A DNA stretch of 39,826 nt, from assembly GCA_900696625.1 (NCBI GenBank), contig CAADGU010000343.1:1-39826 (forward strand). The letters run 5' to 3'. Both the position numbers and the translations under genes were made by a program. Below the pieces are notes generated by a model that did not search any database, had not been told where the DNA came from, and saw only the letters and a program-made list of their open reading frames with translations. The stretch's first letter is position 1; each line of letters starts with the position of its first letter. This DNA comes from an uncultured Chloroflexota bacterium (GTDB taxonomy: Bacteria; Chloroflexota; Anaerolineae; Promineifilales; Promineifilaceae). Shown here piece by piece: positions 20,312 to 33,193 of this stretch.

Positions 20312-20363
20312 TCGTAGTAGGCGATTTATCGCCAACAAAAGGCGATAAATCGCCTACTACGAA
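20312..20363. repeat. 23-bp perfect hairpin repeat (GTAGTAGGCGATTTATCGCC type)
   Basis: Two perfect 23-bp arms around the core GTAGGCGATTTATCGCC flank a 7-base loop, and a T-run follows on the + strand. It separates rtcB from the upstream two-barrel gene. On the - strand, the direction of both genes, no T-run follows, so it is more likely a dispersed repeat than a simple terminator. Confidence 0.8.
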
Positions 20364-20370
20364 CTTTTTT

Positions 20371-23094
20371 TCAGAATTTGCGGCTGCGAATGTTTTCAAA
20401 GGCGGCGTAGACCGACGATTTGCGCCGGCCGCTGCCGTCTACAATACCCGCATTACGCATCAGGTCAGACCAGGCAAACCAGATGACCACCGGAATCAGG
20501 TTCGTATATCGGGCGGCAATGGTACTGTACACATCCTGAACATACATGGCAATGTCCTGATAATACTGCGGCCCAATCTCGTTATCGGCGGCCACGCCAA
20601 TCTCCGTGATCCAGTATTTCAAGCCGGGCAGCTCTTTTTCATACTCGGCAAACGCCTGCCCCAACGTGCCAAACGTCTGGCCCCAATCGAACGGTGCTTT
20701 GGTTCCCCAACGGCCGTAAGGATGAATCCCAATCGCATCCACCGGCCAGGAGCCATTGAGCGCCTGTTTACACGCCTTCAAATACGGAATGCCCTTATTC
20801 GGTCCCGTCGCCAGCCCGCCAAAAATCAGCGGCGACTGCGGCGACTCCGCCCGGATCGCCTCCGCCACCCGTTTCAGCACGATAGCAAACTGCGCCGGCG
20901 GCACATAAACCGAAGCCGGATTATTTTCCAGGTCGCCCTCATTCCAGATTTCATACGCCACCGCCGCGCCATGCTTTTTATAGCGGGCGGCAATCTGGCG
21001 AGCCACGTCGGCCAACTGATTGGCGTAGGTGCTCCAATCATTGTTGCCCGACCAGGGCGCATTGCCCCACACCGTCTCCTGGTTCAGGATAATGAGCGAA
21101 CCAATGCCCTGATCCACATACCCTTGCACCAGCGGGTCAAACTGGCGGAAAGCGGCGTGAATGTCCTGGCGCTCAGCCGGATTGTGCCGCGCCGCCAGCT
21201 TAAACACCCATCGCACCCAATCCATGCCCTGTAGTTCACCTGTTTGCAGCGGGTTGCTGTGCGGCGCATCCGGGTTGATGTTCATGCCGGTTTGTAAAGG
21301 CGGCGTAACCGGAACGGGCAGAGGCTGGGCCGGTGGCTCACGGTGATGGGGCGGCGTGGGGGTAGGCGTCGGTGTAGGAGCCGGTGTGCCTGGCGTCACC
21401 TGAATTCGCAGATAAACCACTTCGCCGAATAAATTCCCCCTATCATCCTTCATACGCCAATCGCCAAAGTGGACACCCGGCGTAGTCGGCGCGGTCAGCC
21501 TGATGGAAACATCGCCCGTGGCGCCAGGGGCAATGGCGGGCAAAGGATAGCTGGTCTGGCTACTCATCGCTTCACCATTCACCAGGACAAGGCTGAAACC
21601 TGTACCCCATACCCGTGTGCCACTGTTCTTGACGCGCCAGGTTTTGACAAATTGCGCACCGGGGGCAATGGGCGTATCGTCAGGGATGGTGACATCGGTC
21701 ACGTAGGCGCTGTTGCTGGTACCCGGCTGGCTGGCAGGCGCTTCCGAAATAATGCGCAAAAATACAATATCTCCAAACTGGTTTCCCTGGGGATCCGCCA
21801 GTCGCCAGTCTCCGTAATACACACCGGGCGGCGAGGGCGCCACCATTTGTACCGTAACATCTACCACCTCACCCGGTTTGGCTGCCGGTATAGGCGCTTT
21901 GCCCCCAGACCCCATCGCGCTGCCACCCACCTGCACCATAGAATAACCCATGCTCCAGGTCGTTTCGCCGGTGTTGCGTATGCGCCACGTCTTGGCAAAC
22001 TTCTGCCCCGCCGTCAGGCGCGTATCATCGGGAATGGTCACATCGGCCACAAAGGCAGCGTTCGATTTTTGGGCTGCTGGCGGCACAGGTTTGGGCTGTG
22101 GTTCTACCACTACTGCCGGAGGCGGCGCTGGAGGCGGCGCCGGTGGCTCAGGCCGGGGCTGCACCGGCGGTGGCGCATCTGGTTTGCCTGTCGCCTTATC
22201 CAGCTCCACGTCAAAGTGACGCTGCAAAGTGAAATCTTTAACCGGAGCAATGAGCCGCTGTGCCTTATTGGCAATGCCGCCAAATTCCGGCCCTAAATAC
22301 CAGATAGCCGCGCCTTTGATTTCTGGATACCGGGCATACAGTTCGCCCACCTTTTGAATGTCTTTGATCGCTTTTTCCGGCGGCGGCACATCGTTGAGCG
22401 TCCAACCCCATTCGGTAATATGCACGGTGGGGCGGGCAATGCCGTGTTTGTCACACACATCAAACAACGCTTTGAAGCGGCCAATTTTATAGGGATAACC
22501 ATCCATGATGTTATCCACGATGTAGCTGTATTCGTGCAGGGCGACGGCGGCTTGAGACGGCCGTTTGGCGCACAATCGCAGATACGCCAACATGCCCGGC
22601 TCTTCCCAGCCGGCCGGTTCCGGCTCCCCGCTCGACCAGGCAAACAGGCTGACCTTATACCCTTCCGCCTGGGCCAGGTTGGCCATATGCACCGCAAAAC
22701 GGCCGAGCCAATCACAATAATCCTTGTCTACCTCGTTAATGGGTTCAATCCAAGTCAATTCTTTGTCAAATTCGGGGGGCAATTTATCACGGGTGCGCCG
22801 CCAGTGCAGTTCCGCGCCGCCTTCGGGGTCTTTGGCATATTTGGGGTCTTTGTACGGCGGCACGTCATAATCATATTGGTGCCCCTGCCCCACCGTGCTG
22901 ATCCGGTAAACCAGGGTGTGCGGCACACCGCTTTTGCGCGCCAGTTGGCCGGCCTCAAAAACCGGCCCGTAACTGTCTACCGACTTGATCATAAACGGAA
23001 TACGCGCCGCATCCAGCGCCTTAAAATAATCCCCAATCCCGGTAGCATTGCCACCCGGCCCGGTGTGAAAACCGATTTTGTTGTGAACTTTCAT
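20371..23094 (-). CDS. Two GH-A-like glycosidase barrels flanking two NBR1-type Ig domains
   Basis: AAAGGAGGACACC precedes ATG 23094; the track start at 23145 is not supported. In the 907-residue product, residues 1-310 form a TIM-barrel-like region with WIEPINEVD (acid/base Asn-Glu) and HITEWGW (nucleophile Glu). A Pro-rich linker follows. Two NBR1-Ig-like modules come next (each with V-T-I-P-D-D-T, K-T-W-R-(I/V)-(R/K)-N, T-T-P-G-V-H-F-G-D-W-R type motifs), then a TPTPTP linker and a second barrel with YEIWNEGDLENN and YWITEIGVA. Both barrels therefore show a clan GH-A catalytic pair. The protein has no signal peptide or membrane helix. Its substrate is unknown. Confidence 0.75.
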   Translation of the reverse strand: MKVHNKIGFHTGPGGNATGIGDYFKALDAARIPFMIKSVDSYGPVFEAGQLARKSGVPHTLVYRISTVGQGHQYDYDVPPYKDPKYAKDPEGGAELHWRRTRDKLPPEFDKELTWIEPINEVDKDYCDWLGRFAVHMANLAQAEGYKVSLFAWSSGEPEPAGWEEPGMLAYLRLCAKRPSQAAVALHEYSYIVDNIMDGYPYKIGRFKALFDVCDKHGIARPTVHITEWGWTLNDVPPPEKAIKDIQKVGELYARYPEIKGAAIWYLGPEFGGIANKAQRLIAPVKDFTLQRHFDVELDKATGKPDAPPPVQPRPEPPAPPPAPPPAVVVEPQPKPVPPAAQKSNAAFVADVTIPDDTRLTAGQKFAKTWRIRNTGETTWSMGYSMVQVGGSAMGSGGKAPIPAAKPGEVVDVTVQMVAPSPPGVYYGDWRLADPQGNQFGDIVFLRIISEAPASQPGTSNSAYVTDVTIPDDTPIAPGAQFVKTWRVKNSGTRVWGTGFSLVLVNGEAMSSQTSYPLPAIAPGATGDVSIRLTAPTTPGVHFGDWRMKDDRGNLFGEVVYLRIQVTPGTPAPTPTPTPTPPHHREPPAQPLPVPVTPPLQTGMNINPDAPHSNPLQTGELQGMDWVRWVFKLAARHNPAERQDIHAAFRQFDPLVQGYVDQGIGSLIILNQETVWGNAPWSGNNDWSTYANQLADVARQIAARYKKHGAAVAYEIWNEGDLENNPASVYVPPAQFAIVLKRVAEAIRAESPQSPLIFGGLATGPNKGIPYLKACKQALNGSWPVDAIGIHPYGRWGTKAPFDWGQTFGTLGQAFAEYEKELPGLKYWITEIGVAADNEIGPQYYQDIAMYVQDVYSTIAARYTNLIPVVIWFAWSDLMRNAGIVDGSGRRKSSVYAAFENIRSRKF

Positions 23095-23107
23095 GGTGTC
23101 CTCCTTT

Positions 23108-23152
23108 GGGTCGTGATGCGTGATGCGTAAGGGGTCACGCTTCACGCTTCAC
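23108..23152. repeat. Fold-back array, unit GTGATGC/TCACGC
   Basis: GTGATGCGTGATGCGTAA is followed by TCACGCTTCACGCTTCACG. It occupies the spacer between the two NBR1-domain genes and reaches the stop of the upstream one. Confidence 0.7.
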
Positions 23153-24297
23153 GAAATTCCGATCACCTGCCGGCCGCGCACATTCAACGTACCTTCCAGT
23201 TTCAGATTGCCCGCCTGGAGCAGTTTGCGATATTCCTGGACACGAAAGGTGGAGGTACGCAGGGCGTTGCCGGTGCCTTTGTCCCCTTTGGCGATGTACT
23301 GGTCGGCCAGGCGGTTGAGCCGCTCTTCGCGCAAGTCCAAAAAGGCGGCAATCCATTGCGCTTCGGTGATGCCCTTTTCACCAATTTTGCCACCCAATCG
23401 TTCGGTAACGCGGGGCAGGACGATGTGCAGCCCTCCCTGGATGTTGGTGTCGTAAAGGGCGGCCAACCCCAGTGGCGAGCGCACATTGTATTGGCGGGCA
23501 GCGGTCACGGCCGGTTTGTAGAAGCTCTCTTCAAAAACAGTATCCTGGGCCTCGGCCATAGCCTGTTCCTGGGCCGCTTCCAACAGGAGTTGCTTGATAC
23601 GGCCGTCGTGCCTTAAACTGGCATCCATCTGGGCCACCCGCGCCGCATATTCATTGCGTAGTGCCTGGGCCGTACTGCTGCTGCTGCGCGCCAGGTAGCC
23701 TTGCAGTACCCGATTTAGCGTGCCGGAAGCCAGTGTGGCCTGGTGCTTGCCAAAGCTAATGACGCCGGCGTCGTAGGTCTGGTAAGCAGCCGGGTTGCCC
23801 TCCGGGCTGCCAGACTCAAAGATGCTGGTGATGGCCCAAATCGTTTGGCGCCATTTGGCCGGTTCAAACTCCCCCTCAAACGCCACCGGCAGCGGCGCCG
23901 GCTTTTTTTCCGACTCTGCCGGTTTTTCTTCTACTTTGACCGGCTTCTCTTCTATTGGGGCGTTATAAGGTACCAGGATGCGCAAGTAAATGAGTTCGCC
24001 AAAGAACTGCCCCTGGGCATTACGCAGCCGCCAATCCCCAAAATGTTTCCCGGCGGTAGCGGGAGCGATCTGGTTGATGGAAACGTCTACCCGTTGGCCG
24101 GGGGTGGCGGGGGGTAGGGGCACGGCCGTGGGGCTGCCCATGGCGTTCCCATTCACAAATACCAGTTCATAGCCCGGCCCCCAGTTGGTACTGCCATTGT
24201 TTTGCACCCGCCAGGTTTTCACAAACGATTTACCCGGTTCTATTTGTACATCATCGGGAATGGTTATATCGGCAATGTAACGGCCGTTGTCGCTCAT
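23149..24297 (-). CDS. NBR1-type Ig domain plus lysozyme-like (GH46/chitosanase-like) domain protein
   Basis: GAGGAGGT precedes ATG 24297. Residues 1-110 are one NBR1-Ig-like module (ADITIPDDVQIEPGKSFVKT, NWGPGYELVFVNG, AGKHFGDWRL). A Glu/Lys/Pro linker (EEKPVKVEEKPAESEKKP) leads to a helical domain from about residue 145 that starts WAITSIFESGSPEGNPAAYQ and continues DAGVISFGKHQATLASG. An early Glu in a Phe-Glu-Ser-Gly context followed by a glycine-rich hairpin is the lysozyme/GH46-type arrangement. The target may be peptidoglycan or chitosan-like polymer. No signal peptide is visible. It shares its linker-plus-NBR1 build with the gene downstream, so the two likely act together. Confidence 0.65.
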   Translation of the reverse strand: MSDNGRYIADITIPDDVQIEPGKSFVKTWRVQNNGSTNWGPGYELVFVNGNAMGSPTAVPLPPATPGQRVDVSINQIAPATAGKHFGDWRLRNAQGQFFGELIYLRILVPYNAPIEEKPVKVEEKPAESEKKPAPLPVAFEGEFEPAKWRQTIWAITSIFESGSPEGNPAAYQTYDAGVISFGKHQATLASGTLNRVLQGYLARSSSSTAQALRNEYAARVAQMDASLRHDGRIKQLLLEAAQEQAMAEAQDTVFEESFYKPAVTAARQYNVRSPLGLAALYDTNIQGGLHIVLPRVTERLGGKIGEKGITEAQWIAAFLDLREERLNRLADQYIAKGDKGTGNALRTSTFRVQEYRKLLQAGNLKLEGTLNVRGRQVIGIS

Positions 24298-24376: not shown

Positions 24377-26410
24377 TCACCGCAATCCCTGCCCCAACAA
24401 ATCAGCCAGTTTAGATAGCTCCAGCGGCTTTCTCAGCCAGCCATATAACCCCAATGCCCGCAAATTCTCCATGTCCTTTTCTACCGCATTTCCCGTGACA
24501 ATCACAAACGGAATCGTCAGTCCCTGTTCTCGCAGGGCATGAAATAAGGCCACCCCTCCCATTTCCGGCATCACCGCATCACTAAGCACCAGGGCAATTT
24601 CGTGACTGTGTTGGGCCAGAATAGTCAAGGCTTCACGGCCGTTACGCGCTTCCCTGACGCTGTAATTCAACAAAGCCAGGCTCTCCACCAACGCCTGCCG
24701 CATAGCATCCTCGTCCTCTACCACCAGGACAACCTGCCTTTGACCTTGAGATAACGCAGCCGCGGACGGTTTCGCGGCCTCGGGGCAATCCACCGCAAAC
24801 GCCGGAAAATAAAGCTGAAAAGTCGTCCCCCGTCCCACCTCGGTCGTCACCCCAATAAAACCGTCATGCTGCTGGACAATGCCGTACACTTGCGCCAACC
24901 CCAAACCCGTCCCCTGACCCCGCTCTTTGGTGGTGAAAAAAGGTTCAAAAATATGAACGACCACCTCGGCCGGTATCCCCGTGCCACTATCCGCGATACT
25001 AACCCGTATCCATTCCCCTGGCCCCATTCCCGGCACCGGCGGCAAGGCTCCCGGCTCCAGCCGGACACTGTTTAAGCCAATGAGGAGATGTCCGCCTTCC
25101 CCCATCGCATCCCGCGCATTCACCGCTAGATTCATGACCGCCTGCTGAATACGCGACGGATCGGCATGGATGACATACGCATCTTGGGCATAATCAAGTT
25201 CAATGTCAATACTCTCTGGCAACGTGCGCCGGAGCAGTCGAATCAACTCTTTCAAAAAGGGCAACAGGTTGAGAGGTTGTCTTTCCATCACCGATTGGTG
25301 ACTAAAATCCAGGATTTGCTGAATCAGGTCGCTGGCTCGTTGCGTCTGCTGTTCCAAAATATGCAAACGTTCTTCGGCCCGCGGTGGCAACTCCAGGGTG
25401 CGTAAAAGAAGCTCCGTATATAGTTTAATGACCGTCAGGGTGTTATTAAAATCATGGGCGATCCCGGCCGCCAACTGACCCACCGCCGCCAGGCGCTCAT
25501 GCGCCTGCAAATGCTGCTGAATCTCTCGTTCCCGTGTCACATCACGGATAACAAAGACCCAACCTTCATTGGTCGGGCCATTCTCGACCGGACGGGCAAT
25601 GACCTCAAAAAGTCGCTCCCCCATCACCACATCATGCCACAAACCTTTGGGTGGGGATGTCATCAGGTCAACCAGAGGGGATTGACCCAGGCGGGTGAGC
25701 GGGGCGGTTTCCCAGCCCGGGGCCAGAAGGGCCAGGTATTGTTCGGCAATCGCATTCGCCAACCTGATATGACCATTCTCGCTAAGCAGAAACATTCCCT
25801 CAGGAACCGTGTCAATAATGAATTGCACTTCCTTAGCCTGTTGCCGTATCTGGTGCAACAACTGTTCACGCTCCTCCTCCGACTTTTTACGCACGGCGAT
25901 TTCTTCTTTCAATCTGATGTTGGCCTGAGCTAACGCCGAGGTGCGCTCCTCTACGCGCAGTTCCAGGCTCGCATTCGCCTCTTCAAGCTTTTGCGTCAGT
26001 TCTCGAATGCGCAGGTGCGTAGTGACCCGCGCCAGCACCTCCTCGTGCTGAAAGGGCTTGGTGATGTAATCCACGCCGCCTGCTTCAAACCCCCTGATCT
26101 TGTCTTCTGTTCTGGTCACAATCGTCATGAAAATGACAGGGATATCCCGTGTCTGCTCATCCGCTTTCAAGCGGCGGCAGGTCTCAAAGCCATTTATGCC
26201 CGGCAGAAGCACATCTAATAAGATCAGGTCTGGATGAGCTTTCTGAGCCAGGCTCAACCCCGTTTCACCACTCAGCGCCACCATGACCTGATAACCTTGT
26301 TGGGTCAGGTAATCGCCGACGACGGCCAGGTTGGCGGAGGTGTCATCCACCATCAAGATTGTCTGGTTTTGAGAAACAAGGGCTTCGTTTGGGTCTTCAA
26401 TGATGCTCAT
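24377..26410 (-). CDS. Hybrid histidine kinase: REC-coiled coil-PAS-HisKA-HATPase-REC
   Basis: I use ATG 26410, which overlaps the end of the upstream kinase gene by 14 bases, a sign of translational coupling. The 677-residue protein has a receiver at about 15-135 ([29 protein letters not shown], a Lys in [10 protein letters not shown]), a coiled coil, a PAS-like region ([20 protein letters not shown]), HisKA with [16 protein letters not shown] near 320, HATPase ([45 protein letters not shown]), and a C-terminal receiver ([27 protein letters not shown]). There is no membrane segment, so it is cytosolic and probably receives phosphate from the partner kinase. No ACGGCCGT lies inside the gene between 24643 and its start. 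Confidence 0.9.
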
Positions 26411-29400
26411 CCGGTTTTTCCTTGATGTACTGCTCAATAAAGGCCGCGATTTGATCAAGCTTAAACTCCTGGGCCATTTCTTGCAATGTGCTGGCAAACG
26501 AGATGTAGTCTGCGTCTTTTTGGGCCAGGCGGGTGGCATGTTTCTGAATATCCCAGACCCGCCCCGACTGAGCCAACTTGTACAACACCATCAATTCCTC
26601 TTGGGGCGGTGGAATCAACAGCGCGGCGACTGTATCGCCCTGCTCCTGCGGTTCAGCACGAAGCCAACTCAGTTCGAGATGCGCTTCCAGCAAATCCAAC
26701 AACTTCCCCATCATAACCGGCTTACGCAAAAAGGCATCACACCCAGCCACCCGACTCTTTTCTTCATCTACATCGAGTACACTGGCCGAGACGGCGATGA
26801 TGCGTACGCTCTCAAGTTCTGGGCGACTTCGAATCTCCTGGACTGCCTCGATGCCAGTTTTGACCGGCATCACCAGGTCCATCAGGATCACGTCAGGCCG
26901 CCATGCCTGCGCCTCATCCACTGCCCGTTGCCCATCCTCAACGGTACGCACCTCGAAACCTAGAGGCGCCAGCATATCCACCAGCAACATTCGGTTGTAG
27001 AGCTTATCATCGGCCACGAGTACGCGCCGCCTTGCCCCCTCGTAACCGACGATCTCGCGGACGAAAGTTGGCTGCTCCGGCTCGGCAATTCCTATCACCG
27101 GCAGAGTCACCTCAAACCAAAACGTGCTGCCGCGGCCCGGCTCACTCTTGACTTGCAGTTGGCTGTCCATCCGTTGCACGATTTGCTGGCTAATTGCCAG
27201 GCCCAGCCCGGTGCCTTCCACCCGCCGCTCGGCCTTACTCACCTGCTCAAAGGGTTGAAAAATGCGCTCCAACTCGTCGGGTGGGATGCCAATGCCAGTA
27301 TCCTCTACCTCGAAAGTAAGCAGGCAGGAGGCGGCTGGCTGCGCGTTTGCCTCGCGGGCAATAACGCGCAGCGTCACCTGCCCCTGGTCGGTAAACTTGA
27401 CGGCGTTACCCAGCAGGTTGAGCAAGACCTGGCGCAGACGTTTCTCATCGGCTTGCACGGTGTTGGGTAAAAGAGAGAGCGTTTCATAAGCAAGGGTGAT
27501 GTTTTTGGCTTCGGTCCGGGCACGGATGATGTCAATAATCTCATGCAAAAACGTGGGCAAGTGGAAAGGGGTGGGATTGAGTTCCAGCTTGCCAGCTTCG
27601 ACCTTGGCCAGGTCGAGTACATCGTTGATGAGGGTCAACAGGTGTTCGCCGCTGCGCTGGATGATGACCAGGCCATCGGCCAGAGAGCCGGTGGAATCGG
27701 CACGCCGTTTCAGGATGTCGGCGTAGCCCAAAATGGCGTTGAGCGGCGTGCGCAGTTCGTGGCTCATGTTGGCCAGGAAGGTGCTTTTGGCCTGGTTGGC
27801 TAACTCGGCCTTTTCTTTAGCGATCTGCAACTGATGGTTCGACTCGGCTAACTCGTAGGTTCGTTCGGTCACTTGCCGCTCAAGTTCCATGGTTCGCTGG
27901 CGCAGGCTCCTCACACGATAGCTGTACCCGGCAACGACCAGGCCCACGATCGCCAGCCCGACCAGAGTTCTGAGCCACCACGTTTCCCACCAGGGCGGTG
28001 TGATAGAAATGCTGAGTGACACACCTTCTTCATTCCATACACCATCTTTATTGGCCCCCTGCACACGAAAGTTATAATCACCCGGTGGCAAGCTGGTATA
28101 AGTGGCAAAGCGGCGTTTGGCATCCACCTCGTTCCATTCATCGTCAAACCCTTCCAGCTTGTAACGATACCGATTCTCTTCGGGGGCCGCATAGCTCAGG
28201 GCGGCAAACGCGAAGGAAAAAACGTCCTGATCGTAATTCAGCGTAATGTGTTCTGTATCCCAGATGGCCCTTTGCAGAATAGAATCTTTACCGATAGCGA
28301 CGGATTCGTTGAAAAGTTGAAAGTCGGTCAGGATGACCGGAGGACGATAGGGATTGTCGGTAATCTGTTCGAGGTAGAAAGCGTTCAAACCGTTAATTCC
28401 ACCAAAGAACATCTCCCCGCTGTTGCTTTGGAAAAAAGCATTTTGGTTGAACTCGTCACTTTGCAGACCGTCAAACACATTGTAGTTGTGAAAAGTTTCG
28501 GTGCGGGGATCGAATTTCGATACCCCTTTGTTGGTTGAAACCCACAAATTACCGGCTGCATCTTCCATGATGGCATAAATCACGCTGTTGGGCAGGCCAT
28601 CTTTTTCCGTGTAATGGCGAAAGGTTTCAGTCTCGCGGTCAAATCTATCCAGGCCACTACCCGTACCTATCCACAAAGCGCCCTCCTGGTCTTCATGGGC
28701 AACATACACCTCACCCCGGCCCAGACTTTGGGGGTTATCGGGGTCATGCCGGTAGTTCACAAACTTCTCTGTTTTGGGATCAAAGCGGGTCAACCCCTCT
28801 GTCCAACTGGTCAGCCATAAAAACCCGAAGCGATCTTCATAGATGCCTCTGACCGTACTGGGACGAGCATTATTCGGATCACCGGGATCAGGCAGGTAGT
28901 GATGAAACCCCCCGGTCTGACGGTCAAAGCGGTTAAGCCCGCCCCCATCTACGCCAATCCATAAAGTACCGGCGCTGTCCTCATAAATGGCCAGGATAAT
29001 GTCACTGGCTATGCTGTTGGCTTCGTCCGGGTTGTAAAGATACCGTTGAAATTGTTCTGTTTCTCGATCAAAAGTGTGCAATCCCCCGGCAAATGTGCCC
29101 ACCCAAAGCACACCCGTACTATCTTCATAAATGGCGCTGACAGACCAGCTTTCGTTAAGGGCGTAGGGGTTTTCCGCATCCGGTTCGTAACGGGTCACTT
29201 GATTGGTACTCCGGTCAAAACGGTTGAGCGCTCCATCATCACCGCCCACCCACAGGATACCGTCTTTATCTTCATAAATGGAATAGATGTAGCTGGTGCT
29301 CAAGCTGTTCGGATTGTCTGGCAGGTTTCTGTAATGCGTAAACTGTATTCTCCCCGGCTCAAGTTTATTGACCCCTCCGCCATTGGTTCCCAGCCAAAGG

Positions 29401-30515
29401 ACACCGCCGCGGTCTTCATCGAGGGTATCAATATTGTCATCAGACAAAGCATACGGATTGGTGGGGTCCTTCTGGTAGCGAATGAACTGTCCGGTTCGAG
29501 GATCAAACAGATTCAGCCCTTTCGCGGTAGCCACCCAATACGTACCCGTGCGGTCCTGGTAAACCTGGCGGGAAGTATTATCGCTGATGCTGTACGGATC
29601 ATCAGGGTCATACAGAAAACGGGTAAATTGCCCACTTTCACGATCCAGCAGATTAAGCCCGCCGCCTTCGGTGGAAATCCACAAGTTACCGGCTTCATCC
29701 TCGTATACATTTAAGACTTCACCAGGGCCAATTGTGGTGGCATCCGCTGGATCATTGAAGAAATAGGTAAATCGGCCTGTTTCCGGGTTAAAGCTAACCA
29801 GACCATCTTTGTCATTGCTCAGCCAGATGATCCCGGTTTTGTCCTGGTATAGCGCCTTGATATTTTGCCCGGTGGCAAGATTCGTTAGCTCAGGCGGGGC
29901 GAATTGATAATGGGTGAAGGTTTCACTTTGGGGGTCAAATTGGGTCAACCAACCTTCATCCATGTACAGCCATAAGATGCCGGCCTCGTTCTGCCAAATG
30001 TTCCAAACCCTATTATTTTTCAGGCTATTTGGGTCGCCAGGGTCATGCCGGTAGCGGGTAAAGGTATCTGTGTCTGGGTCATATTTGTTCAGCCCTCCTG
30101 CTTCCGTGCCAATCCAGAGCAGTCCTGACGCATCTTCTACGATAGCCCTGATCCGGTTGTCGCCCAGGCTGTTGAGGTCGTTGGGATCATTACGGTACAC
30201 CACAAAGTTGTAACCATCGTACCGGTTGAGGCCATCTTGCGTACCAAACCACATAAAACCACGACTGTCCTGAAGGATGGAAATTACTGTTGATTGGGAC
30301 AGCCCATCTTCAAGGGACAGGTGAGTGAATTTGAAGTCCGGCGCAATGGGGGGGGCGGTTAACGGGATATCTTCACCGGCAGCCACGGTCAGCATTACCG
30401 TCTCTGGAGTACTCCGGGCAAGCACAGACATTAGCAGTGAGCCAGGGAGCAACAGCATAACTGACACGGTAACGATTTTTAAGCGTACACGCCAAACGGT
30501 CCATTCGAGTGTCAT
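26397..30515 (-). CDS. Reg_prop hybrid sensor kinase with two seven-bladed propellers
   Basis: An N-terminal signal or anchor helix precedes about 14 propeller repeats of the type ...Y-E-D-x-x-G-x-L-W-I-G-T-x-x-G-G-L-x-x-F-D-P (residues about 60-745), enough for two seven-bladed propellers. A Y_Y_Y-like domain follows ([16 protein letters not shown]), then a TM helix near 845-867 ([16 protein letters not shown]), a coiled coil, HisKA with [19 protein letters not shown] near 916, HATPase with [11 protein letters not shown] and [10 protein letters not shown], and a receiver with [14 protein letters not shown] and ILMDLVMP near 1210. A helical C-terminal tail of about 80 residues lacks an obvious HPt histidine motif. 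It senses an extracellular ligand, probably a carbohydrate as in Bacteroides-type systems (inferred), and shares an operon with the second kinase. Confidence 0.9.
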
Positions 30516-30855
30516 TATTTTTGTACTCAGGGGTTATTCGATAATTTACAATACGGTTTCCTCAGAAACGACAACTTGTTTCTGCTTTGGGGTATGTACA
30601 CCCCGCGATCATGGGGCATTTGGTAAAGTGCAACACAGCTCTTGAACATCTTTGGGCCTCCAAAATGCAAGTGGGGTATTGTCTATTATCTTAATTCTAC
30701 TCGCTTTTGGTGGCCCTTTTTATGTCTGTTGAATTACCGAATACTCTCAATAATTATAGCTTCTTGATGGGATAATCGGTAGGGGTTAGTTGGTAAGTCA
30801 GGGCGATTCCAAAGTCGGGTGTTATTCGTGATAGCGGAGTTCGCACGCCCACGCG

Positions 30856-30889
30856 CGGAGAGCAGCACGTAGGCGTGCTGCTCTCCGCA
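30856..30889. terminator. 15-bp perfect hairpin
   Basis: Arms GCGGAGAGCAGCACG and CGTGCTGCTCTCCGC are separated by TAGG. An AAAAA run follows on the + strand, not a T-run, so it is not a classical terminator for the - strand genes; it may be a dispersed repeat or RNA-stability element. Confidence 0.6.
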
Positions 30890-30935
30890 GACAAAAAGCC
30901 TGGACTGTTGGAATTACCCTGAGGAAGTAGTGTGC

Positions 30936-30990
30936 AAGGGGCCTTGATCCCTGACCGTTTCAAGCAGTTCTGCCCCTTGCCTGGCACTTG
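30936..30990. repeat. Palindromic element GCCAGGCAAGGGGC, copy B
   Basis: The right arm CTGCCCCTTGCCTGGCACTT matches copies A and C exactly, while the left arm is shortened to GTGCAAGGGGC. It lies directly after the stop codon of the 289-residue LysM protein. Confidence 0.7.
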
Positions 30991-30993
30991 TGA

Positions 30994-31863
30994 TCAAGGG
31001 TAGGCTAATTCCAGCGAGTGGCAGAGGCCGCGCGTCAGCCAGCCGGCGGTGGTGTCTGGGGCGTGGTTGAGGATGCGCATTTCTACGGCCGTACCACCCC
31101 CATAACGTGGATAAAATAACACCCGCGCATGGACGGAGGCAAAAGTGACCGGTAAATCATAAATCCAGCCAGAAGCCATGGCCCCAGCCGGAGCCGACCA
31201 GACGGCAATCTGCCCGCCGGTGACATCGTGCAGCGCATAAACGCCCGCCTGGGCGCTGCGCCCCCCCTGGTGGAAACTAAATTGGGCGCAGGCATATTGG
31301 TCGGTAAGTGCGACCGCCGTCCGCCAATTGGACGGCGGAATCACCAACACCTGCCCCACGCTGACCGTGCTGTTGAGCTGGTTAATCTGCTCCAGCGCTT
31401 CCATGGTGGTGTTGTGGCGGCTGGCAATGCGGTAGAGGGTGTCATCCGGCTGCACAATATAAATGGCGCTGCCGGTGGCATAGATAGAAGGGGGCACGGC
31501 CACTTCGGCTTCGCTCAGCACGGCCGTGACCGGCATTTGGGGCGCGGCGGTGACGCTGTTCGCCGATGAAGCCACACGCATCCCGGCTGCCCGCTGCCGC
31601 AGCGCCGGTTCGCCATCATAGGCCATTGATACGGCGGCCATTGCCAACACCAGCAGCAGGGCGCAGCCAGCCGCCAGCCAGAGGGGCGACTGCCAATTCA
31701 GCGGCTGCCAGTGAACCTGACGCCAATAGGCGGCCCGCCAGCACCATTTTGTCCAAAAGGGAATGGGGTGGGAGGGGGTACGGCCGTGCCCCTTCTCTTG
31801 CCCCCTAACTCTAATAACTGTTTCTTTTTTGGGGAAAACAATGCTCCGTTCTTCGTTGTTCAT
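30994..31863 (-). CDS. Membrane-anchored LysM protein with a novel-looking C-terminal domain
   Basis: This 289-residue protein has AGGGGTG before ATG 31863. A basic cytosolic N-terminus of about 65 residues is followed by one membrane helix (LWLAAGCALLLVLAMAAVSM), a spacer, one LysM domain (YIVQPDDTLYRIASRHNTTM...VGQVLVIPPS) and a C-terminal domain of about 115 residues ([70 protein letters not shown]). That last domain recurs in the next gene and I do not know its name. LysM binds peptidoglycan or chitin-like glycans, so this is a single-pass protein with an outside glycan-binding part. Confidence 0.8.
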   Translation of the reverse strand: MNNEERSIVFPKKETVIRVRGQEKGHGRTPSHPIPFWTKWCWRAAYWRQVHWQPLNWQSPLWLAAGCALLLVLAMAAVSMAYDGEPALRQRAAGMRVASSANSVTAAPQMPVTAVLSEAEVAVPPSIYATGSAIYIVQPDDTLYRIASRHNTTMEALEQINQLNSTVSVGQVLVIPPSNWRTAVALTDQYACAQFSFHQGGRSAQAGVYALHDVTGGQIAVWSAPAGAMASGWIYDLPVTFASVHARVLFYPRYGGGTAVEMRILNHAPDTTAGWLTRGLCHSLELAYP

Positions 31864-31871
31864 TTCACCCC

Positions 31872-31912
31872 TATTTATCCGCGAAAACCCGCGTCCATCC
31901 GCGTTCCATTTA
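31872..31912. repeat. Short CCGCG-type dispersed repeat
   Basis: Three CCGCG words occur within ATCCGCGAAAACCCGCGTCC and ATCCGCGTTCC. Similar strings occur as dispersed repeats in several phyla (from memory, not checked). Confidence 0.4.
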
Positions 31913-31983
31913 CAGGTGGGGGCAGTATAACAATCGCGCTGCTAACAGTCGGCGAAAAAGGCGTGAAACTCAGGCAACAGAAA

Positions 31984-32045
31984 GTGCCAGGCAAGGGGCA
32001 GAACCATCTGGGCGAACCAAAGCCTTGCGCCCCTTGCCTGGCACT
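31984..32045. repeat. Palindromic element GCCAGGCAAGGGGC, copy C
   Basis: AGTGCCAGGCAAGGGGC and GCCCCTTGCCTGGCACT form perfect 17-bp arms around about 28 bases. It lies just downstream of the second LysM gene stop at 32060, like copies A and B after their genes. Confidence 0.75.
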
Positions 32046-32059
32046 ACGCAAACCACCGT

Positions 32060-33193
32060 CTAATAACCAGCAGGGTACTGAATTTCGATGGCGTGGCACC
32101 CCCCTTGTGTCAGCCAGCCGTAGGGCGTTCCCGGCGCGGGATTCACGATCTCCATCTGAATGGGCGAACCGCCGCCATAACGGGGATAAAAGACCACGCG
32201 CACATGCACCGAAGGATGAGACAGCGGCAGGCCATTGATCCAGCCAGAATCCACCGCCCCAGCGCGGGCCGTCCAGGAAGCAATCTGCCCACCGGTGACA
32301 TCAATCAGCACATAAATGCCGTCCATCGAGCCACGATACCGGTCCCGCCCTTGCATAAAGTTAAAGCGGGCGCAGCTCCGATCCACCTGCACCGTAGGAT
32401 TCGTCTCGGTGGTGGCGGGGGCGTTGGGCACGTCCGGCAGCGAGGATGGCACCTGTGACCAGTTGGCAGGTGGCGCACTGGGGGCCGGGGCAGCAGGAGC
32501 GACATAAGGATTCTGCACCCAGGGGGTGGTGGGGGCGGTATAGCTGCCGGCCGCCGGGATAATCAAAACCTGGCCGACGTAGATGGTATTGGCATTGGCG
32601 AGATTGTTGGCCTGGGCTACGGCCGTGACCGTCGTCCCATACCGTGTGGCAATGCGATACACTGTATCCCCCGGTCGCACCACATAGGTGACGCTACTGC
32701 CACTGGCCGCAGGCGCAATAGCGGAAGCGGCCGGGGCGGAAGTTATCGCCGCCGCTTCTGCGGCGGGTGCAGCGGCCACGACAGCAGCGGCGGCGTTAGC
32801 GGCATTGGCCTCGGCGCCGGGAATATTGAGCAACTGGCCTACCAAAATGAGATTGGGATTGGCAATCTGATTGGTCGCTACCAGGTCAGACACGGTGGTA
32901 TTGTAGCGCCGGGCAATGCTATACAACGTATCACCCGACTGCACCGTGTAGTCGTAGGCTGACGTGATGCCGACCAGGCCAACCACCAACGCCAGAGCTA
33001 CCAGCAGGGCGACCTTGTGCGCCGTCCTGACCTGGGAAATCTCCACCCTGGCATGACGCCAATAGGCGATCTTCCAGCGCAATCTGTTCCAAAACGGAAT
33101 GGTTGCGGCTGGTTTAGCCGATGAGTGGGGATCAGAAACTTTGATAATGGGGAGCGTTATGGGTGAGGAGTTCTCCTCTTGGACGCTGTTCAT
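32060..33193 (-). CDS. Membrane-anchored protein with two LysM domains, paralog of 30994-31863
   Basis: AGGAGGAAG precedes ATG 33193. The 377-residue protein has a basic N-terminus, a membrane helix ([20 protein letters not shown]) and LysM 1 ([20 protein letters not shown]). An Ala-rich spacer ([20 protein letters not shown]) leads to LysM 2 ([20 protein letters not shown]) and a second low-complexity spacer. The same C-terminal domain as the neighbour follows ([66 protein letters not shown]). The IPFW-x-K/R-x-x-W-x-A-Y-W-R motif before the helix is also shared, so a gene duplication with LysM loss or gain is likely. Confidence 0.85.

What the first reader, a model, noticed from the sequence alone, without database searches (positions are those of the whole stretch)
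20371..24297. NBR1-type Ig domains combined with glycosidase-like domains and no export signal
NBR1 Ig domains are best known from a eukaryotic autophagy receptor. Here three copies occur in two neighbouring genes next to two GH-A-type barrels and a lysozyme-like domain. The larger protein shows both catalytic glutamates in each barrel, so it could be a two-active-site enzyme. Neither protein has a signal peptide, which raises the question of whether they act inside the cell, on phage or cell wall during lysis, or leave by another route.
Basis: partly seen in the sequence, partly recalled or inferred. Interest (0 to 1): 0.7.

Follow-up and report, generated by a model that had tools for sequence, protein, structure and literature searches.

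The report
Unexported phage-lysin-like gene pair
Two neighbouring genes in a Chloroflexota (Anaerolineae) genome make enzyme proteins that look built to cut cell-envelope sugars but carry no export signal; a key domain also occurs in phage cell-bursting enzymes, so the pair most likely works as a chromosomal endolysin-type kit rather than as autophagy-like proteins.

Summary
Gene A (23149-24297, minus) is FW/NBR1-Ig plus a GH46 chitosanase-type domain. Gene B (true start ATG 23094, end 20371, minus) is a GH-A barrel (B1), two FW domains and a PslG/GH39/GH5-like barrel (B2). Catalytic residues are present in all three enzyme domains. Strong ribosome sites fix both starts, and in-frame stops leave no room for a signal peptide. 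None of 34 distinct related FW-enzyme proteins and none of 18 distinct GH46 relatives has a hydrophobic N-terminus; B1-only proteins mostly do (15 of 20). Both genes are under purifying selection (dN/dS about 0.1), and the pair is adjacent in ten genomes. The new lead is B1. It is unknown to Pfam, but occurs in phage endolysins (B1-GH25; one directly behind a holin) and in a prophage tail/lysis module (B1-C39-GH-A). A supported tree places the window's B1 beside a phage B1. Best reading: a chromosomal, endolysin-type envelope-degrading pair, made in the cytoplasm and useful only once the membrane is breached. An eCIS route is not required. A cytosolic conflict role stays open: one relative is fused to EAD7 and an AAA ATPase. 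FW domains in bacteria, Chloroflexi included, were already known.

The parts
23149..24297 (-). Gene A, 382 aa: FW domain + proline/glutamate-rich linker + GH46 domain; no signal peptide
   Evidence: dN/dS 0.07-0.10 against genus relatives
23971..24264 (-). FW (NBR1-type Ig) domain of gene A
   Evidence: PF16158, 91 bits; place; structure matches 6vhi/4ole
23278..23856 (-). GH46 domain of gene A; catalytic Glu (SIFESG) and Asp (TYDAG) positions kept
   Evidence: PF01374, chitosanase structures, invariant residues
24302..24307 (-). AGGAGG ribosome-binding site of gene A; in-frame stop four codons upstream of the ATG
   Evidence: sequence
20371..23094 (-). Gene B, 907 aa from ATG 23094: B1 - FW - FW - B2; no signal peptide
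   Evidence: dN/dS 0.09-0.12
23100..23105 (-). AGGAGG ribosome-binding site of gene B; gene A's TGA stop lies in the same frame upstream
   Evidence: sequence
22204..23094 (-). B1: GH-A-type (beta/alpha)8 barrel with no Pfam family; E121 and E228
   Evidence: AlphaFold2 pLDDT 91, Foldseek, alignment; homologues in phage endolysins
21751..22038 (-). First FW domain of gene B
   Evidence: PF16158
21397..21690 (-). Second FW domain of gene B
   Evidence: PF16158
20377..21318 (-). B2: PslG/GH39/GH5-like GH-A barrel; NE and TE glutamates kept in 41 and 42 of 43 sequences
   Evidence: PF00150 34 bits, PslG profile match E 2.5e-9, counts

Best explanation
The pair is a chromosomal, endolysin-type envelope-degrading kit. 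Both proteins are made in the cytoplasm without a signal (shown by start sites and conservation). Their enzyme domains, B1, B2 and GH46, are glycoside hydrolases with intact catalytic residues (shown by sequence and fold; activity not shown). Their substrates lie outside the membrane (inferred: the same B1 barrel occurs in Sec-exported paralogues and in phage endolysins, one of them next to a holin). The FW domains act as Ig-like spacers or binding modules (inferred). The enzymes would act once the membrane is opened, by a phage or prophage holin, another lysis event, or cell death, and then break down wall or sheath glycans of the producer or its neighbours (inferred). B1 was exchanged between host and phage genomes; the direction is not settled.
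For: B1 in two phage groups from IMG/VR: L191 (portal and terminase on the contig) and L192/L193, as signal-less B1-GH25 proteins, endolysin by PHROGs; L193 directly downstream of a Holin_LLH gene. Prophage L078: B1-C39-GH-A behind tail genes and before small phage-type proteins. Tree: window B1 clade sister to phage L191 (98/95), and the larger clade with prophage L078 and other GH46-paired B1s 99/98, after removing long branches (similar with all rows). No hydrophobic segment upstream of the first domain in 44 FW-enzyme and 22 GH46 proteins (34 and 18 distinct), against 15 of 20 B1-only proteins with one. Pair adjacency in ten genomes. One relative fuses GH46, SH3 domains and B2 in one signal-less protein (L104). 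A GH46 relative is joined to VanY and SH3 with eCIS_core inside a contractile-injection operon (L085). Purifying selection.
Against: No holin or phage gene next to the pair in the window; neighbours are ordinary chromosomal genes. No viral match for the GH46 or B2 domain. A whole-genome search for Holin_LLH found none (but its controls did not ring). Peptidoglycan activity is untested; GH46 enzymes are known for chitosan and PslG for an exopolysaccharide. One B1-FW protein is fused to EAD7 and an AAA ATPase, which argues for a cytosolic role at least there (L080).
Confidence: 0.5

Rival explanations
1. The proteins act inside the cell, as effectors or regulators of an immunity or conflict system, or on an intracellular glycan; the FW domains mediate protein contacts as in NBR1.
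For: L080 (same family) joins B1 and three FW domains to TPR, EAD7 (52 bits) and AAA_5 (75 bits), with a weak EVE match and a weakly DUF2357-like gene next to it. EADs are recruitment domains of counter-invader systems (PMC7159879). No export signal anywhere.
Against: Only one such fusion was seen. B1 paralogues are Sec-exported and phage B1s sit in endolysins. PADLOC finds nothing in A or B. No conserved defence neighbours.
Confidence: 0.2
2. The proteins are exported by a signal-independent machine, such as an extracellular contractile injection system (eCIS), and attack other cells.
For: The window's genome has sheath and eCIS_core loci. A GH46 relative in another family is an eCIS-core cargo inside a sheath/tube operon (L085).
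Against: A and B have no eCIS_core domain. No sheath gene was found in G272, which has the A-B pair, or in G167, G244 and G214, which have B-type proteins; all are 93-100% complete. In the window's genome the pair is not on the contigs of the eCIS loci.
Confidence: 0.13
3. They are scavenging enzymes for environmental chitosan- or exopolysaccharide-like glycans, released passively when cells die.
For: Nearest characterised relatives are chitosanases and PslG. A Sec-exported B1 paralogue exists in the same genome (L087).
Against: B1-only relatives carry signals, whereas 34 distinct FW-enzyme relatives do not, which is hard to explain if secretion were useful.
Confidence: 0.15

Closest known systems
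Phage endolysins (holin-dependent, multi-domain, GH25 type)
   Same: Signal-less, modular; barrel B1 is shared with phage endolysins found here (L191, L193)
   Different: Window pair is chromosomal, without a holin, and carries FW domains and GH46/B2 instead of GH25
GH46 chitosanases (6lwu, 7c6c, 1chk)
   Same: Fold and catalytic Glu/Asp positions
   Different: No signal, fused to FW; one-residue gap near the catalytic Asp; substrate unknown
PslG (4zn2), GH39-related endoglycosidase
   Same: B2 profile match and catalytic glutamates
   Different: PslG belongs to an exopolysaccharide system; B2 is the tail of a four-domain protein
FW domain of NBR1 and ILRUN, and bacterial FW proteins (PMC3357945, PMC9233695)
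   Same: Ig fold, three of four tryptophans, about 31-34% identity
   Different: No autophagy-receptor partner domains; FW sits at the N-terminus or in the middle with enzyme domains, whereas the 2012 survey found bacterial FW near the C-terminus
Chromosomal phage-derived lysis, explosive cell lysis of Pseudomonas aeruginosa (PMC4834629)
   Same: Idea of a host-resident endolysin whose use depends on a membrane breach
   Different: From general knowledge that gene lies in a pyocin cluster with holins; the window pair does not

Membership tests
Phage endolysin | Made without signal peptide | tested here: met
Phage endolysin | Encoded in a phage lysis cassette with holin | tested here: not met
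   window neighbours are chromosomal; met only for relatives: L193 with a holin, L078 in a prophage tail region
Phage endolysin | Degrades peptidoglycan | not testable with these tools
   needs an assay
Phage endolysin | Domain shared with phage lysins | tested here: met
   B1 in L191, L193, L078 with tree support for L191 and L078
GH46 | Pfam family above cut-off and fold | tested here: met
GH46 | Catalytic Glu and Asp | tested here: met
   invariant in 14 sequences
Clan GH-A (B1) | (beta/alpha)8 barrel with Glu after strand 4 and Glu in strand 7 | tested here: met
   TM-scores near 0.47, so the kinship is distant
Clan GH-A, PslG/GH39/GH5-like (B2) | Family profile and both glutamates | tested here: met
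FW / NBR1-type Ig | PF16158 above cut-off | tested here: met
FW / NBR1-type Ig | All four signature tryptophans | tested here: not met
   three of four; the last is Y or F
NBR1 autophagy receptor | ZZ, UBA or PB1 domains beside FW | tested here: not met
   none found by Pfam
eCIS cargo | eCIS_core (DUF4157) domain | tested here: not met
   absent from A and B, present in L085

The most novel reading that the evidence does not exclude
Promineifilaceae-type Chloroflexota keep a family of signal-less FW-armed glycosidases, exchanged with their phages, as a dedicated programmed-lysis or conflict response in which glycosidase effectors are held in the cytoplasm (in L080 under an EAD7/AAA controller) and set free on infection.
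Probability: 0.15. Interest if true: 0.78.

Novelty: new variant of a known kind. Interest (0 to 1): 0.5.

Why it matters
It identifies a barrel domain (B1) that Pfam does not cover and that is shared by phage endolysins, Sec-exported host proteins and a conserved chromosomal pair, and it gives the poorly understood bacterial FW domain a testable context. If the lysis reading is right, these Chloroflexota carry their own endolysin kit; if the conflict reading is right, wall-type hydrolases serve as intracellular immune effectors.

Tried and rejected
Longer starts with signal peptides: none possible. Pair inside a prophage: no phage genes in the window. eCIS as obligatory route: sheath not found in several carriers. 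Direct phage matches with whole window proteins: none in GenBank phages or with single-sequence IMG/VR scans; only the B1 profile found them. B2 and GH46 profiles in viruses: none. PHROGs on window proteins: none. NCBIfam: none. B1 by sequence in PDB: nothing significant. Holin_LLH in own genome: none, but the search had no ringing control. Conserved operon partners beyond the genus: none.

Full report
What is there. The window is contig C343 of a 6.9 Mb draft genome; close relatives are Anaerolineae MAGs, some labelled Promineifilum or Ardenticatenaceae. Gene A (23149-24297, minus, 382 aa) has one FW/NBR1-Ig domain and a GH46 domain. Gene B has B1, FW, FW, B2. The ORF list gives B a GTG start at 23145, but AGGAGG sits before ATG 23094, and relatives start at the same residue, so B is 907 aa, 20371-23094. 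Gene A also has AGGAGG before its ATG and an in-frame stop four codons upstream; gene A's own stop lies in gene B's frame. No signal peptide can be added to either.

Domains. FW scores are far above cut-off, and human ILRUN and NBR1 are the nearest solved sequences and folds. Three of the four signature tryptophans are kept. GH46: Pfam above cut-off, PDB chitosanases by profile (E 4e-20) and fold (on a medium-confidence model, pLDDT 76), catalytic Glu and Asp invariant in 14 relatives. B2: PF00150 above cut-off, PslG best by profile, glutamates kept in 41 and 42 of 43 sequences; L125 (the same protein as L073) has lost both and L128 (the same as L074) the acid/base. B1: no Pfam hit, no PDB sequence match, but a confident barrel (pLDDT 91, pTM 0.91) whose best solved matches are GH-A enzymes at modest TM-scores. 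E121 follows strand 4 and E228 is in strand 7, the GH-A catalytic places; among the aligned members whose INE motif is clear E121 is lost in L072. B1 against B2 by profiles gave only 27% probability but aligned the two glutamate regions.

Two kinds of B1 protein. In 298 genomes of the class, B1 is nearly confined to the window's family and order. B1-only proteins mostly carry a signal or lipobox and a linker (15 of 20 with a hydrophobic segment; the other five include the phage-like L078 and contig-edge cases). B1-FW and other FW-enzyme proteins never do: 0 of 44 (34 distinct after removing genomes held under two names). GH46 relatives: 0 of 22 (18 distinct). Hydrophobicity was judged by a simple 12-residue average, not by a trained signal-peptide predictor. 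Most B-type proteins carry an extra C39-like peptidase domain; the window's genus lacks it. In the window's own genome most other FW proteins are exported or membrane-anchored, apart from L014, a signal-less FW-FW-C39-GH-A protein.

Pairing. In the family every GH46 hit lies next to a B1 gene: six of six genomes. With the named genomes, FW-GH46 beside B1-FW occurs in nine distinct genomes, and GH46 alone beside B1 alone in a tenth. L104 fuses GH46, SH3 domains and B2 in one signal-less protein. dN/dS is 0.07-0.10 for A and 0.09-0.12 for B. In the genus the pair sits in a conserved chromosomal neighbourhood, often behind two LysM genes.

Phage link. The B1 profile finds three IMG/VR contigs. 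L191 also encodes a portal and a terminase; its protein is B1-GH25 (PF01183 82 bits; endolysin PHROGs, matched through the GH25 part). L193 (and the near-identical L192) has B1-GH25 directly behind a Holin_LLH gene and near a tail tube gene. L078 in genome G181 has B1-C39-GH-A behind minor tail proteins. In the tree the window's B1 clade is sister to L191 (98/95), and the GH46-paired B1s, L191 and L078 form one clade (99/98) once long branches are left out (with all rows the window-L191 join stands at 99/96). The direction of transfer is not shown.

Other contexts. L085, in another family, is a GH46 protein with eCIS_core, VanY and SH3 domains inside a sheath/tube operon. The window's genome has sheath and eCIS_core loci, but no sheath was found in G272, which has the pair, nor in G167, G244 and G214, which have B-type proteins. 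L080 joins B1 and three FW domains to TPR, EAD7 and AAA_5, next to a gene with a weak DUF2357 match; EADs belong to counter-invader systems (PMC7159879), a paper in which a search for 'NBR1' finds nothing.

Reading. B1 is found either in Sec-exported host proteins or in phage endolysins, so its substrate very probably lies outside the membrane. A and B combine it with two more glycosidase domains, keep catalytic residues under selection, and never gain a signal. The simplest account is an endolysin-type kit that depends on a membrane breach. What is shown: domains, residues, starts, co-conservation, selection, phage kinship of B1. What is inferred: substrate, trigger, role of FW. The cytosolic conflict reading rests mainly on L080 and stays open.

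Known background. Bacterial FW domains, Chloroflexi included, with very diverse partners were reported by PMC3357945; PMC9233695 describes how a fungal FW domain binds a mannosidase. Host-resident endolysin lysis is known from Pseudomonas (PMC4834629). I found no description of the B1 family or of this pair, though the paper library is partial and only few searches were made.

Noticed in passing
window 20314-20360: Perfect inverted repeat GTAGTAGGCGATTTATCGCC with a 7-base loop between gene B and rtcB; 132 exact copies of the arm in the genome (69 forward, 63 reverse), many in facing pairs: a REP/MITE-like element, zero in the reversed control.
   Followed up: partly
L080:3883-10029 (minus), genome G290: 2049-aa protein B1-FW-FW-FW-(weak EVE)-TPR-EAD7-AAA_5 beside a weakly DUF2357-like gene: a possible new conflict-system architecture with a glycosidase-type barrel.
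   Followed up: partly
L085:2760-5951, genome G021: eCIS cargo-type protein with eCIS_core, VanY, GH46 and SH3.
   Followed up: partly
L191:8001-10571 and L193:8001-9815: Phage endolysins with a B1 barrel of no Pfam family ahead of GH25; B1 may merit its own family entry.
   Followed up: yes
window 24377-33193: In G234 and L114 the pair lies directly behind two LysM genes; in the window two large histidine kinase genes lie between them.
   Followed up: partly
L014:2216-4480 (minus), own genome: Second signal-less FW-enzyme protein locus of this genome: FW-FW-C39-GH-A.
   Followed up: no
window 23095-23148: The spacer between genes A and B contains short direct repeats and is open in gene A's frame after the TGA stop, so read-through would fuse A and B; not tested.
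   Followed up: no
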